Origin: a virus
DNA length: 41,188 nt
Reading direction: 5' to 3' (one strand)
IMG/VR virus record: IMGVR_UViG_3300045241_000093
Coordinates: 1-41,188 of that record
The translations under genes were made by a program, and so were the position numbers. The notes under the pieces were generated by a model. The model made no database searches. It had not been told where the DNA came from and saw only the letters and a list, made by a program, of their open reading frames with translations. The first letter of the stretch is position 1. Each line of letters begins with the position of its first letter. Shown here one piece after another: positions 1 through 41,188 of this stretch.

Positions 1-127
1 CCGCGGCGGGACCACGCAAACCCCCGGCCACCTTGCCGACCTCGCCGAGCGTGTAGTCGATCCCCTGCGGTGACCACGCCCACGCCTGCGACGCGCCAGC
101 GCCGCGCGGGGCGAACGCCGGGTAAGC
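1..127. repeat. Left copy of the 127-nt exact terminal direct repeat
   Basis: Bases 1-127 are identical to 41062-41188. The length matches a common maximal assembly k-mer, so this is most likely the overlap left when a circular (or circularly permuted/concatemeric) phage genome is assembled, not a biological terminal repeat. The reading frame of the lysozyme-like gene continues without a break across it, which supports true adjacency of the two ends. Confidence 0.95.
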
Positions 128-512: not shown

Positions 513-3500
513 CGGCCCGACAGTTCCCGCTTCGCGGCCTTGTGGGCTGCCGTCTTGTTCAGCCGCCGTGGCAACCCCGGCCCGACAAGTGTGCGCGCGA
601 GAACGTTCAGCGGTGTCTTGTGGAACATACGGGCCGACTGATCCTGGTTCCGCTGACGCAGCGCCGTGACGATCTGCGCCTCCGGCGTCGGCGAGAACAA
701 CGACGACGCCGCCGCGCCGTACGGCCGGTTCGTCGGCTGCCCGTACTGGTCGAGTCCGAACGCAAGGTTCGCGCCGGCCGACGCGACCGGGTTCAGGAAC
801 CCCGACAGCTGGCCGGGATGCACCGCCGCCTCCGCCACCTCCGCCGGCGTCACGAACGGCGAGAACGTCGAGAAGTCAGCGACGAGCGGCGTGTTGCCGT
901 GCTCCCGCAGCTGGAACACCCCTTGCTCATAGGATGGGAGATCGCCGACCTCGCGCTGCTGCCGCTCACGTCCGCGCTGCCCCAACGTCGCGAGCGCCGC
1001 CGTCTTGTACGGATGCTCGCTGAACGTGTTCGCGGCGAAACCGGCGGTGCCTCTGATCCACGGGTAGAACCAGACCGCACGTGAAATGAACCTCCGCTCG
1101 AAATCGCCGAGCCGGTCGTAGGCGATCGCCTCACGGTTCGCCCGTTTCGCGACCGCCGCCAACCGTGCCTGCTCACCCTTCGGCAACCCCTCCGGGTGAA
1201 GCATGTGCACGAGCATCGTGCGAAACTCGTCAGGGGTGCGGTAGCCGGACCGACGCGCCTCATACGCGAGGCTGTTGAACCGGAACGGCGCGTCGATGTG
1301 TTTCGCCCACCAATGCGCGCCGACCGTCGCGACCTTCGCGACCGCGTTCGACCCTTCGTGCGGCATCGCGTCGAAACCATGCTGACCCGCAGCGGCGAAC
1401 GACCGCAACCGCTCCTCGTGCGACAGCTGCTTCCACAACGTCACACTCTTGGCGAGCTCGCCCGGCGACGCCGACCCCTGAATGATGTTCGCCGACGCGT
1501 TCGTCAACGCGCGCGTGCCGAGGTGGCCGATCTTGAAGTAGACCGTCGCCGCCGTCACCGCCGAGTTGACGCTGTCCACCTTCGTCGCGATCCGTCCGCG
1601 CGGCCCGGACGGCACCCTCGCCAGGTCGCCGAGAATGTTCCGGTCAACCCATCGGTAGCCGGCCGGCGCCGGCGCCCCGATCTGCTGCGCCTTGTCGAGC
1701 GCGAACCGATCGTGCAACCCCGGGATGACCCGGGCCATGTAGTCGCGAAACGCAACCTCGTGGCCGGCGAGCTCATCCGTTGTGATCGTCGCCCGGCCGA
1801 GCGCCTGGTCGATCGACGGCGGAATCTTCGCGGGGTTCGTCACCTCCGGGTCCAACACGAGCACGTCGCGGGAGCTCCGCCGTGTCTCCGACCCCGTCTT
1901 GTAGACGTCGGAGCGGAACCGGGTGGTGTTGACGTACCGGTACGCGGCCCGCATGTGCGCGGCGACGAGCCCGGCCGTGTTGTTCGGCACCATCCCATGC
2001 TCGAGCCCGTGCCCCGTGAACGTCTTGCGGTTGATGAACGGCTTCACCTTCCCGAGCACCGGCGACGCCGCCCCGGCCATCGCCGTGCGCGGCGCCTTCG
2101 GCTCAACCACCCGATAGGAGACGTAGCCGCGGCCCGGCCGTGGCGCCTGCGGCCCGACGATCCCCGTCGGCTCCACACGCCGCGCCGCCGCCTTCTCCAT
2201 CGACTCGAGCCGGTCGCGCGCAACCGACAGGGCGCCACCCAAGCGCTCCGCCCGCGCCGAACCGGCCGGCGACAGGATGCGGCCCTTCATCACGACCTTG
2301 CCCGACGGCAAAGGCCGCTCCAACGGATGAACCGCCTTCTCACGCACGACCCGCTTCGACCCCTTCACCGTCCCGAGCGGCGGCCGCTCCGGGTTGCGGC
2401 CCGTCCGCAGGTACGCGCGCGCCGCGGCCGCTTCCGCGCGCGCGAGCGGTACGCTTGGGTCATCCGGCAGATGGTGTGCCGCTAGGTGCGTCTCCTGAAT
2501 CTCGAGCGCGCGGCGTGCCGCCGCCTCGTCCTTGAAGTGAAACTCCGGCCCGGTGAGTGCCGCCTCCTCGTGCGCGCCGATCGCCGTACGGAGCTCGTCC
2601 CGCTCGCGCGACAGCTTGAGGAACGCCTGCGCCGCCGGCATATCCTTGTGCTTCTCGGCGATGCGGTGCGCCTCGTTCTCCGCCTCGAGCCGCTTCTGCT
2701 CCGACACGTTCTTCTCGAGCCGCTGCACCTTGTAGTTGCCGCCCGCCCCCGACAGCTTGCCGCCGCGGGTGCGCCCCGATTGCTGGCGACGGTACTTGCC
2801 GCGCGACTGGTTGATTTCGCGTTGCGTCGCCTGCTCCGCCGGCGTCAGCTTCTTCTCGTAGATGTTCGACAGGAACTCCTCGTACTTCGCGTCGAGCTTG
2901 TCGAGCCGAGCCTGCGCCTCCTTGACCGTCCGCGGCCGGGTCGCCGCGCCCGCCTCGGTGACCGCCGGCAGCTTCTCCGCCGCCTTGAGCAGCCGCATCT
3001 GGTCAGGGTCGAAATGCCCCTCTTGCGCCTTCGCGGTCGCGCGCTCGTGCAGCTGCGCCAGCCGTTCGACGGTTGAGCGCTGACGGACCAGCCCGGGTGA
3101 CGGCTCGCCGAGCCTCGCCGGTGTCGGGTTGACGTACTTCGCGCCGGCGCGGATGCGGCCCGGCGCGGACGCGCGCGTCTTGAGTCCTTCCTCGGTCATC
3201 AGCCCGTAGTCGGCGGCGATCTTGTCGACTTCGCGCTGGCCTTTCGCGATCCGCCTGTCGAGCTCCGCGAGGTTCGGGTAGCGCTCCGAGTCGACCACGA
3301 CGCGGCCGGTCGGGTGCATCTTCACGAGCCCGAGCTCGCCGACCTTCGCGTACCGCTTCGCCATCGCGAGGTTCTTCCGCGGGTTGACCCCGGCGCGTGC
3401 CTGCGCGGTGTGGAACCGGACGGCTTCCTCCGCCGTCGACTGTTCCGACGTCAGCCTGAGCGCGTCCTGTGCCGTTCTCCGCGGAATCTTGTTGTCTTTC

Positions 3501-29220: not shown

Positions 29221-29404
29221 GGGCGAGCGCCTCGAGGTGGCACCGCCGGCAGCGTTTCGCGCGCGCGTACTTCTCTCCGCCGCATTCGCAGAGGTCGCGG
29301 CGGTAGCCGGCGTACCGGCCATCACGCATGTAGCCGGTGTGTGCCTTGCGGCATCGGTCGCAATGGCAGCCGTGGAGGTAGCAGCTGACGGTGCCGTGGG
29401 TCAC
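29213..29404 (-). CDS. Zinc-finger protein of the HGT/CxCxxC family, 63 aa
   Basis: A 63-aa protein: MTHGTVSCYLHGCHCDRCRK, YAGYRRDLCECGGEKYARAK, RCRRCHLEALARG. The HG-T, C-x-C-x2-C and YxxxLCxCG segments match two units of the larger 145-aa protein at 34310-34747. The conserved clusters could coordinate two zinc ions. Such proteins are frequent in actinophages but without known function. The stop is TAA. Confidence 0.65.
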   Translation of the reverse strand: MTHGTVSCYLHGCHCDRCRKAHTGYMRDGRYAGYRRDLCECGGEKYARAKRCRRCHLEALARG

Positions 29405-29796
29405 GCGGCCGCCCGCAGTTTGGCGCGTGCTGAGTTGACGGCGTTCTCTGCCTGTTTCCAGCTGAGTCCTTCGGCGGCCGCTATCTCATGGTGGGTGGCG
29501 CCGGCGGCCGCCCGGATCAGGCAGCGGCGTTGGCGCGGCGCGAGCCGGCCGACAGCCTCGAGCGTTTGTGCGAGCTCGTCGCGGGCGATGACGGCGGCGA
29601 GGGTCAGGTCGTCGCCGGCGCCGTGGGCGGCGGTGTCGAGCGTCACGGCGTCCGTGAGGAGCCGGTGCTTGCCGCGGGTCGCGGCCCGGGTGACGTCGAC
29701 CAGGTGCAGGTAGACGTTCCGGTCGAGCAGCCGGGCGAGCGCCGCCTCCTGGCGGTAGTCGTCGCGGTCGAGCCACGGCGCGAACAGGAACCTCAT
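29401..29796 (-). CDS. RNA polymerase sigma-like / sigma region 4-like protein
   Basis: A 131-aa protein. The N-terminus WLDRDDYRQEAALARLLDRN resembles sigma region 2 of ECF-type factors, and the C-terminal AVGRLAPRQRRCLIRAAAG, then ATHHEIAAAEGLSWKQAENA and SARAKL match sigma region 4 HTH. It is short compared with typical ECF sigma factors (about 160-190 aa), so it could be a partial sigma or a region 4-like anti-activator. Located next to the integrase and attP. Could switch host RNA polymerase to late genes. Confidence 0.65.
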   Translation of the reverse strand: MRFLFAPWLDRDDYRQEAALARLLDRNVYLHLVDVTRAATRGKHRLLTDAVTLDTAAHGAGDDLTLAAVIARDELAQTLEAVGRLAPRQRRCLIRAAAGATHHEIAAAEGLSWKQAENAVNSARAKLRAAA

Positions 29797-29885: not shown

Positions 29886-29928
29886 ACGCCCGGAATCGGC
29901 TAGATCATGCGGTTTGGGCGGGAACGCA

Positions 29929-29955
29929 ACGCGGGTTCGATTCCCGCCGCCTCCA
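29929..29955 (+). other. Candidate attP core: 3' end of a tRNA or tmRNA
   Basis: Plus-strand 29931-29947 is a perfect T arm: stem GCGGG, loop TTCGATT, stem CCCGC. It is followed by CGCCTCC and A, the 3' acceptor strand plus discriminator base of a tRNA-like molecule, about 250 bp from the integrase gene. No matching 5' acceptor strand (GGAGGCG), D arm or anticodon arm lies upstream, so this is only a 3' fragment. Integrating phages commonly carry such a fragment at attP so that integration restores the host gene. Host target is probably tmRNA (ssrA) or a serine tRNA. Confidence 0.75.
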
Positions 29956-29990
29956 CTTTCCGCGTAACTATGCGGGTCGGGCAGGAACAC

Positions 29991-30206
29991 TTACTCCAAC
30001 CCCTCTAGAACGTAGACGACGCGGCCGTGGATCAGGTCGCGGCCGCGGCGGTGGTAGACGAGCGGCTGCGGGATTTCAAAGGCGTCAGTCCCCATGACAC
30101 CCAAGTAGCTGATGACCGGCTGCACCGGGACGTACCAGCATGGGCGGTCGTCGGGCAGATTCTCAACGCGCCCGTCCCACGGTCCGCCGATGAACTCCGC
30201 GATCAC
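29991..30206 (-). CDS. Small hypothetical protein after the integrase, 71 aa
   Basis: GTG start at 30206, Shine-Dalgarno GAGGAGG about 5 nt upstream and partly in the integrase 3' end. Contains IAEFIGGPWDGRVENLPDDR and WYVPVQPVISYLGVMG and ends YVLEGLE. Resembles small phage proteins with the GGPWDG motif. Possibly an excision or control factor; function unknown. Confidence 0.62.
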   Translation of the reverse strand: MIAEFIGGPWDGRVENLPDDRPCWYVPVQPVISYLGVMGTDAFEIPQPLVYHRRGRDLIHGRVVYVLEGLE

Positions 30207-31210
30207 GCGTCCTCCTCGCCGCGCATCGACCGGAGCACGCGCGCGAGGTCCTCGGTGTCGAAGCCGGCGTACGCGTCCCGGGTGGTGCCTATGTCGGAGT
30301 GGCCGAGGAGTTCCTGCGCCGCCGTCAGGTTGCCGGTCTTGCGGACAATGTCGGTCGCGACGGTGTGGCGGCCGCGGTGCATCCCGAACCCCTTGTGGTC
30401 GTCGGTAACGACGCCGGCCTGCTCGAGGCACCTGTACCACCACGTATGGACGGAGCGGGGCACCAGGCCGCGCTCATGCCGCCGGTAGGTGCGCATCCCG
30501 CGGGTGTCGGTGCGGTACAGCAGGTGATGGTCGAGGATGACGTCGCGGCCGCCGAGCTCGATCTCGAGGGCGCCGAGGTCGCGCCAGAACGGTTCGTCCA
30601 CGATCGGGACGATCCGGACCTTGCCGCCTTTGCCGGTGACCGTTAGCGTGCGACGCTCGAAGTCGAAGTCGCGGAACCTCACGGCGGCGAGCTCGGCACG
30701 CCGGAGCGCGTAGACCAAGATGAGCCAGCAGCCGAGCTTGTCGGCGAGGTAGTCCTGCGATGCGAGCACGCGGGAGACGAGTCCGCCGCTGAACGGCTCA
30801 CGGCGCACCCCGCGGCGCTTCGGCGACGCGAGCGCGCGGGCAGGGTTGCCGATCACGCCGCGCCGCTCGCGCACCGCCCAGTCGAAGAAGTCGACCCACA
30901 CCGACCGGACCTTCGCTCTCGTGCGGCCGGCGGAGTCGCCCCAGTAGTGGTCCCAACACTCCCGCAGCCGCTCCGTGCCGACGGGCGCCTCAAGGTCGGC
31001 GAGGGTCAGGTCGGAGAAGAACAGGGCAAGCCGAGCGAGGATGGACTCGTAGTCGCGGATCGTGTCCTTGGTGGCTCCCCATTCGCTGCGTTTCCAGCGT
31101 ATGTAGCGTGCGACCTCGAGCCCGAGGGGAGTCGAGCGGTAGCTCTTGTCTCTCAGGGCGTCACGGAGGATACGCGCCGCGGCGCCGAGCTCCAACAGGG
31201 TGCCGGTCAA
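30203..31210 (-). CDS. int: Tyrosine recombinase integrase
   Basis: A 335-aa integrase. The N-terminal core-binding domain has YIRWKRSEWGATKDTIRDYE. The catalytic domain shows Arg in VYALRRAELAAVRF, Lys in TVTGKGGKVRIV, the HxxR box in HRGRHTVATDI, His in LGHSDIGTT and nucleophile Tyr at residue 314 in TRDAYAGF. It splices phage DNA at attP, the tRNA-like segment nearby, into the host. It overlaps a small downstream gene and follows the Cys-rich gene by 4 nt. Typical length for phage integrases. Confidence 0.95.
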   Translation of the reverse strand: MTGTLLELGAAARILRDALRDKSYRSTPLGLEVARYIRWKRSEWGATKDTIRDYESILARLALFFSDLTLADLEAPVGTERLRECWDHYWGDSAGRTRAKVRSVWVDFFDWAVRERRGVIGNPARALASPKRRGVRREPFSGGLVSRVLASQDYLADKLGCWLILVYALRRAELAAVRFRDFDFERRTLTVTGKGGKVRIVPIVDEPFWRDLGALEIELGGRDVILDHHLLYRTDTRGMRTYRRHERGLVPRSVHTWWYRCLEQAGVVTDDHKGFGMHRGRHTVATDIVRKTGNLTAAQELLGHSDIGTTRDAYAGFDTEDLARVLRSMRGEEDA

Positions 31211-40387: not shown

Positions 40388-41188
40388 TCATCTGCCGTAC
40401 CTCTGTTGCAGCAGAGCGAACAGCCGGTTCATGGCGCCGGATTCTCCGGACGCGTCGGCTGCCTGACCGAGCCGACGTCCGTCGTAGCGCCCTGGGAACG
40501 TGCGGTAGTGATAGGAGTGCGCCGCATGGACAGGGTCGACGGGGTCCGTGTACGGGTTCTCGCGCACCTGCAAACCGAGTTGCTGCGCCAACCGGATGCT
40601 GGCGAGTTCGGTCTGCGGATTCGTTGACGCGAAGTGAATGTGCTCACCCGTTGAGTGCGTCGGACCGCCGATGCCTTCGTGCAGTAGTTCCGCAAGTGAT
40701 CCGGGCGCGGCGACGCCGCCGACACCCGGGTTAGAAGAATCTCGCGCCGGCGCGCCCTGCCGCGCTGCGGTGGGTTCAGCGGAGGCTAGAGGCGCCGGCG
40801 CGACCGGCGGGGCGTTACGCGCTGCGAGCGCCTTGATGATAGGCGTAAACGATGACAGCCCCGGCTTGTCGAATCCCGCCGCGAGCTCGAGCAGCAACCG
40901 CCGCCGGTCGCCGCCTCCCGCCGGCGTCGGGGTCGGGCCTGGTCCCATCATCGCCGGGCCGCGCATCGGCGCCGGCGAGCTCGAGCCGTACGCGGACAGC
41001 GCGTTCGCTATCTCGCGTTGCGGGTTCGCCGGCCGCTCGAACTTCGACACGATCGCCCGCACCGCGGCGGGACCACGCAAACCCCCGGCCACCTTGCCGA
41101 CCTCGCCGAGCGTGTAGTCGATCCCCTGCGGTGACCACGCCCACGCCTGCGACGCGCCAGCGCCGCGCGGGGCGAACGCCGGGTAAGC
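40388..41188 (-). CDS. Lysozyme/lytic-transglycosylase-like virion protein, C-terminal part (gene crosses the junction)
   Basis: Continues the gene whose start is at 305-307 on the circle; frame is kept across the overlap of the repeats. The middle is Pro/Ala-rich, SSPAPMRGPAMMGPGPTPTP, then AGFDKPGLSSFTPIIKALAA. The C-terminal about 90 residues form a second domain: HSTGEHIHFASTNPQTELAS, then AHSYHYRTFPGRYDG and RRLGQAADASG, a His-rich layout like small metal-bound wall-lytic or wall-binding domains (H-x-H...G-x-A-x-D). Two-domain muralytic enzyme probable; catalytic details not proven. Its stop precedes the coiled-coil/membrane gene. Confidence 0.78.
   Translation of the reverse strand, partial: AYPAFAPRGAGASQAWAWSPQGIDYTLGEVGKVAGGLRGPAAVRAIVSKFERPANPQREIANALSAYGSSSPAPMRGPAMMGPGPTPTPAGGGDRRRLLLELAAGFDKPGLSSFTPIIKALAARNAPPVAPAPLASAEPTAARQGAPARDSSNPGVGGVAAPGSLAELLHEGIGGPTHSTGEHIHFASTNPQTELASIRLAQQLGLQVRENPYTDPVDPVHAAHSYHYRTFPGRYDGRRLGQAADASGESGAMNRLFALLQQRYGR
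41062..41188. repeat. Right copy of the 127-nt exact terminal direct repeat
   Basis: Identical to 1-127. The same coding frame of the lysozyme-like gene passes through both copies, so joining them restores one gene. Confidence 0.95.

What the first reader, a model, noticed from the sequence alone, without database searches (positions are those of the whole stretch)
29929..29955. attP core is the 3' end of a tRNA or tmRNA, next to a tyrosine integrase
A complete T arm plus acceptor strand is present without the 5' half of any tRNA, 250 bp from the integrase. This both supports a lysogenic lifestyle and gives a way to identify the host: the fragment must match the 3' end of a host tRNA or ssrA gene.
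Basis: partly seen in the sequence, partly recalled or inferred. Interest (0 to 1): 0.7.

Follow-up and report, generated by a model that had tools for sequence, protein, structure and literature searches.

The report
Phage attachment site copying bacterial tmRNA end
This phage carries a copy of the last stretch of a bacterial tmRNA gene beside its integrase, the usual mark of a virus that inserts into that gene without breaking it, and integrase relatives sit at the same gene in soil actinobacteria of the class Thermoleophilia.

Summary
Confirmed, and resolved to one target. Window 29929-29955 is the T arm, 3' acceptor strand and discriminator base of a tmRNA (ssrA) gene; ARAGORN finds no complete tRNA or tmRNA in the window. 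It lies 247 bp from the end of a convergent tyrosine integrase gene. The window has a 127-bp direct terminal repeat, so it looks like a complete phage genome (41,061-bp unit) with an internal attP. In 399 genomes of one class (one titled Thermoleophilia), 7 hold integrase relatives at E<=1e-20; of 8 matches, 5 sit directly beside a complete ssrA, convergent, and a sixth (broken frame) has an ssrA end 2.4 kb away. One bounds a 42-kb prophage with terminase, portal and RecT. In 6 of 6 compared repeat pairs the repeat starts one base before the T stem and ends at, or 1-3 bases past, the ssrA end. Two other viral contigs carry the same core with relatives of this integrase (66% and 47%). The core alone does not name the host: it also occurs in Planctomycetota, Myxococcota and others; integrase and prophage kin point to Thermoleophilia. 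Integration at ssrA is well known: a new member of a known kind.

The parts
29931..29955 (+). attP core: ssrA 3' end (T arm 29931-29947, 3' acceptor strand 29948-29954, discriminator A 29955); base 29930 is also shared in all compared attL/attR pairs, 29929-29930 with host ssrA
   Evidence: RF00023 match; identity blocks; single copy in window
30203..31210 (-). tyrosine integrase, 335 aa, convergent to the core; R, K, HxxR, H and Y catalytic positions visible in the alignment (motif recalled)
   Evidence: PF00589 1e-15, phrog_1 1.8e-32, alignment of 11 relatives
29920..29930 (+). left (P) arm motif GGGAACGCAAC touching the core; several relatives have GGGAACCTTGC or similar at the same place; possible integrase-binding repeat
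   Evidence: 11 P arms lined up, motif seen post hoc
29983..29992 (+). right (P') arm motif AGGAACACTT, resembling the P motif in the same orientation, 27 bases after the core; relatives at +27/28, +38 or +41
   Evidence: 12 P' arms: 11 hits against a shuffle mean of 1.8, maximum 7, motif chosen post hoc
29960..29975 (+). short hairpin CCGCgtaactatGCGG in the P' arm just after the core; similar hairpins of differing sequence in several relatives
   Evidence: sequence; arms; not tested as a structure
1..127 (.). direct terminal repeat, left copy
   Evidence: first 127 bases equal last 127
41062..41188 (.). direct terminal repeat, right copy

Best explanation
The window is a complete temperate phage genome whose attP core (29930-29955) copies the 3' end of host ssrA. 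The integrase at 30203-31210 recombines attP with the ssrA gene, exchanging strands inside the shared T arm (most likely the T loop, with the T-stem strands as inverted core sites). After integration the 5' part of ssrA is completed by the phage copy of the T arm and acceptor strand, so tmRNA stays functional; the old 3' end is left as a repeat at the far end of the prophage. GGGAAC-type sequences beside the core (29920-29930 and 29983-29992) are possible integrase arm sites. The host is most likely a member of the class Thermoleophilia (about 0.75). Shown: fragment identity, adjacency, integrase family, the same arrangement in bacterial relatives, repeat boundaries. Inferred: crossover in the T loop, arm sites, host of this very phage, activity.
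For: Fragment is ssrA. Integrase. Integrase relatives at E<=1e-20 in 7 of 399 genomes of the class (8 matches): 5 of 8 directly beside a complete ssrA (ARAGORN), convergent as in the window; 1 of 8 (G231, frame broken) 2.4 kb from an ssrA end on the same contig; 1 beside tRNA-Cys; 1 on a 4-kb contig without the core. Two more ssrA sites carry C-terminal pieces of this integrase family (L330; L304, by reading the translation). G010: two core copies 42,041 bp apart bound a prophage with terminase, portal, head protease and RecT; its RecT is 57% identical to the window's over 226 aa. Identity blocks in 6 of 6 compared pairs are 26-29 bp and always start one base before the T stem. Viral contigs L016 and L014 carry core and integrase relatives (66% and 47%); L016 also shares terminase and portal in the same order. 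G001 (titled Thermoleophilia) shows an occupied and an empty ssrA junction, 137 of 138 bases alike up to the core end and different after it. 127-bp terminal repeat: core is internal, as attP should be.
Against: No integration was observed; no prophage close to this phage was found. The 25-mer is not class-specific: 63 stretches with core plus TTT came from many phyla. The integrase was sought only in Actinomycetota: class 7 of 399, phylum 1 of 396, that one being a genome of the class. One relative sits at tRNA-Cys, so the family is not ssrA-only. A portal profile gave no host signal (2 of 399 against 1 of 386).
Confidence: 0.92

Rival explanations
1. The fragment is the attP core of a phage whose host lies outside Thermoleophilia; integrase kinship at 36-44% reflects an old, widely spread integrase family.
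For: Core found in many phyla; integrase relatives are only 36-44% identical in bacterial genomes; portal profile has a hit in the phylum sample; integrase was not sought outside Actinomycetota.
Against: 7 of 399 in the class sample against 1 of 396 in the phylum sample, itself in the class; RecT of the G010 prophage is 57% identical.
Confidence: 0.22
2. The fragment is a decaying remnant of a tmRNA gene once carried by the phage, or tmRNA sequence picked up by chance, not an attachment site.
For: Only the 3' end is present.
Against: T arm and acceptor strand are flawless; the left edge falls within one or two bases of where attL/attR repeats of related elements begin; same core beside the same integrase family in L016 and L014.
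Confidence: 0.03
3. Besides being attP, the hairpins after the core (CCGC-GCGG and its counterparts) end ssrA transcription after integration, so the phage brings its own ssrA terminator.
For: Hairpins of differing sequence follow the core in several P' arms.
Against: Not tested as a structure or terminator; they need not be more than integrase arm sequence; it adds to the attP reading rather than replacing it.
Confidence: 0.1

Closest known systems
ssrA-integrated prophages of Bifidobacterium breve (Bb447phi1, Bb1192phi1; PMC6109161, passages read)
   Different: Host class and core sequence differ; no comparison of proteins was made here
ssrA genomic islands of Dehalococcoides (PMC3146451, passages read)
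   Different: They use a serine recombinase (DsiB); the window has a tyrosine integrase
tRNA/tmRNA integration classes of K. P. Williams (2002, 2003; known here only as cited in PMC3146451 and PMC2647930, and from recall; the 2003 paper is not held)
   Same: Tyrosine integrases with cores at set sublocations in tRNA or tmRNA genes
   Different: The integrase lineage described here was not checked against that classification
XerC/XerD tyrosine recombinases
   Same: Best curated family match (TIGR02224, 6.9e-25); XerD structure 1a0p at 5.3e-11
   Different: 88 bits against a cut-off of 335, so not filed as XerC

Membership tests
Temperate phage attP at ssrA with tyrosine integrase | Core identical to the 3' end of a host tmRNA gene | tested here: met
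   (25-mer exact in 101 of 399 class genomes)
Temperate phage attP at ssrA with tyrosine integrase | Intact tyrosine integrase gene beside the core | tested here: met
   247 bp from core
Temperate phage attP at ssrA with tyrosine integrase | Core internal to the phage genome, single copy | tested here: met
   (terminal repeat)
Temperate phage attP at ssrA with tyrosine integrase | Relatives integrated at ssrA with core repeats at both ends and ssrA complete | tested here: met
Temperate phage attP at ssrA with tyrosine integrase | Integration and excision of this phage at ssrA | not testable with these tools
   Needs a host, a lysogen or in vitro recombination
Phage of Thermoleophilia | Close prophage or spacer match in that class | tested here: inconclusive
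   Integrase kin 36-44% and RecT 57% in class genomes; portal gives no signal; spacers not tested
Complete tRNA/tmRNA gene carried by the phage | Complete gene found by ARAGORN or Rfam over cut-off | tested here: not met

The most novel reading that the evidence does not exclude
One lineage of tyrosine integrase with a compact attP (GGGAAC-type repeats touching and 27-41 bp beyond a 26-bp ssrA core) drives ssrA occupancy across Thermoleophilia, shared by free phages, 42-kb prophages and elements of only 3.8 and 5.5 kb that may be phage satellites.
Probability: 0.4. Interest if true: 0.45.

Novelty: new member of a known kind. Interest (0 to 1): 0.3.

Why it matters
It gives an unplaced environmental phage a named insertion target and a likely host class for which my paper searches listed no described phage, and it gives attL/attR junctions that can be looked for in metagenomes of soil Thermoleophilia. 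The mechanism itself is textbook.

Tried and rejected
Complete tRNA or tmRNA in the window: none. DNA relatives of the attP region among 50,697 phage records: none. Integrase by back-translated patterns in viral contigs: none confirmed, although L016 and L014, found by the core, carry relatives: a false negative of that search. Reading CTTT after the core as host sequence (my assumption): rejected, because the empty junction L305 continues with TCGCC while occupied L304 has CTTTCCGC. Taking the core as a host name: rejected. Portal profile for the host: no signal. Papers on Thermoleophilia phages (Thermoleophilia with prophage; Solirubrobacterales with phage, host prediction, integrase; Solirubrobacter with bacteriophage, lysogen; Thermoleophilia with temperate phage): no listed title or abstract start describes one; of these only PMC9903846 was opened (passages). 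The tool does not name the class of G002 and the others; it is taken as Thermoleophilia because G001, whose locus L201 bears that name, was the centre of the class search that contains them. Pairs of core copies: 14 genomes show two copies; I compared 6 of them as attL/attR pairs (those whose second copy had a left flank unlike ssrA: G090, G229, G010, G231, G003, G322) plus G001 as occupied/empty; G004, G041, G145, G201, G205, G239 and G259 were not compared (in G041, G145 and G239 both copies show ssrA-like flanks or contig ends).

Full report
What is there. Window 29931-29955 reads as a perfect T arm, 3' acceptor strand and discriminator base. The Rfam tmRNA model matches with E=8.2e-12 for the record; its last ~28 positions fit, while most of the tmRNA body is absent. 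ARAGORN finds no tRNA or tmRNA. The 25-mer is unique in the window and absent from 100 shuffles. A tyrosine integrase is encoded convergently at 30203-31210, 247 bp away. The first and last 127 bases of the window are the same, so the record is most likely a complete phage genome (41,061-bp unit) and the core is internal to it, as an attP should be.

Same target in bacteria. The core plus TTT was found in 63 stretches of genome contigs, titled Planctomycetota, Archangium and Pyxidicoccus (Myxococcota), WOR-3, Acidobacteria, Actinomycetota and others. In the class of G001 (its locus titled Thermoleophilia) the 25-mer occurs in 101 of 399 genomes. The integrase has relatives at E<=1e-20 in 7 of 399 genomes of this class, 36-44% identical. 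Of the 8 matches, 5 (G090, G229, G010, G139, G002 contig 204) lie directly after a complete tmRNA gene and convergent to it, as in the window; G231 has the core 2.4 kb away and a broken frame; G002 contig 234 has a relative next to tRNA-Cys; G181 is on a 4-kb contig without the core. Two more ssrA sites, L330 and L304, carry integrase C-terminal pieces. In a sample of 396 genomes of the whole phylum only one matched, G010, which belongs to the class.

Junctions. Second core copies give attL/attR pairs 5.5 kb (G090), 3.85 kb (G229) and 42.0 kb (G010) apart, and pairs in G231, G003 and G322. In 6 of 6 compared pairs the repeat starts one base before the T stem and runs to the ssrA end or 1-3 bases past it (26-29 bp); these 6 were chosen from 14 two-copy genomes, as told under Tried and rejected. 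G001 holds both an occupied and an empty ssrA junction, alike at 137 of 138 bases up to the core end and different straight after it, so the core ends with the gene, and CTTT in the window is phage sequence. The 42-kb G010 element encodes terminase, portal, head protease, tape measure-like and RecT proteins, and its RecT is 57% identical to that of the window over 226 aa. It is a prophage in ssrA.

Related viruses. Of 104 viral stretches with the core, at least two, L016 and L014, also encode integrase relatives (66% and 47%; only L016, L014 and L043 of these stretches were searched for the integrase). L016 shares terminase (42%) and portal (43%) in the same order. In an 11-sequence tree the window, L016 and L014 form one supported group.

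How it works. Integration at ssrA by a tyrosine integrase, with strand exchange within the T arm, leaves ssrA whole: five occupied ssrA genes are called complete by ARAGORN. The repeat boundary at the T stem suggests exchange in the T loop; this is inference. GGGAAC-type repeats flank the core (11 P' hits in 12 arms against a shuffle mean of 1.8 and maximum of 7; the motif was chosen after looking, and on the P side the stated pattern was reached in only 1 of 11 arms, against a shuffle mean of 0.7, because its last bases differ). They are offered as possible arm sites.

Known or new. ssrA is a well-known integration site: Bifidobacterium prophages of about 41 kb use a 26-bp ssrA core (PMC6109161, passages), and Dehalococcoides islands insert in the ssrA T loop with a serine recombinase (PMC3146451, passages). 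The window is a new member of this kind. The gain is the likely host class. That part is less sure (about 0.75): the phage itself was not found integrated, integrase identity is moderate, only Actinomycetota were searched for it, and a portal profile gave no signal.

Noticed in passing
window 1-127 and 41062-41188: 127-bp direct terminal repeat: the record looks like a complete, circular or terminally redundant phage genome.
   Followed up: partly
L260 2913-8454 (G090) and L263 1724-5594 (G229): Elements of only about 5.5 and 3.85 kb with the same integrase family, bounded by ssrA core copies; possible satellites or islands.
   Followed up: no
L246 1501-2602 (G002): A 40% integrase relative sits beside tRNA-Cys, so the family has changed target at least once.
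   Followed up: no
L304 1-560 and L305 4208-4345 (G001): Occupied and empty ssrA junctions on two contigs of one metagenome bin, likely strain variation for an ssrA element.
   Followed up: partly
L354 about 2042-2090, minus strand (G245): A core copy whose left flank (GGCGGGAACGCTAC) is nearly the window's P arm (GGCGGGAACGCAAC), likely an attR of a related element; no protein match to the window in the 2.7 kb held.
   Followed up: no
window 29401-29796, minus strand: Small ORF with a weak sigma-70 region 4 match (20.1 bits, below the cut-off of 25.7) on the other side of the attP.
   Followed up: no
L330, L332, L306, L043, L014: A CTGCAAAT-containing stretch, often in a hairpin, recurs next to ssrA cores in several elements; meaning unknown.
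   Followed up: no
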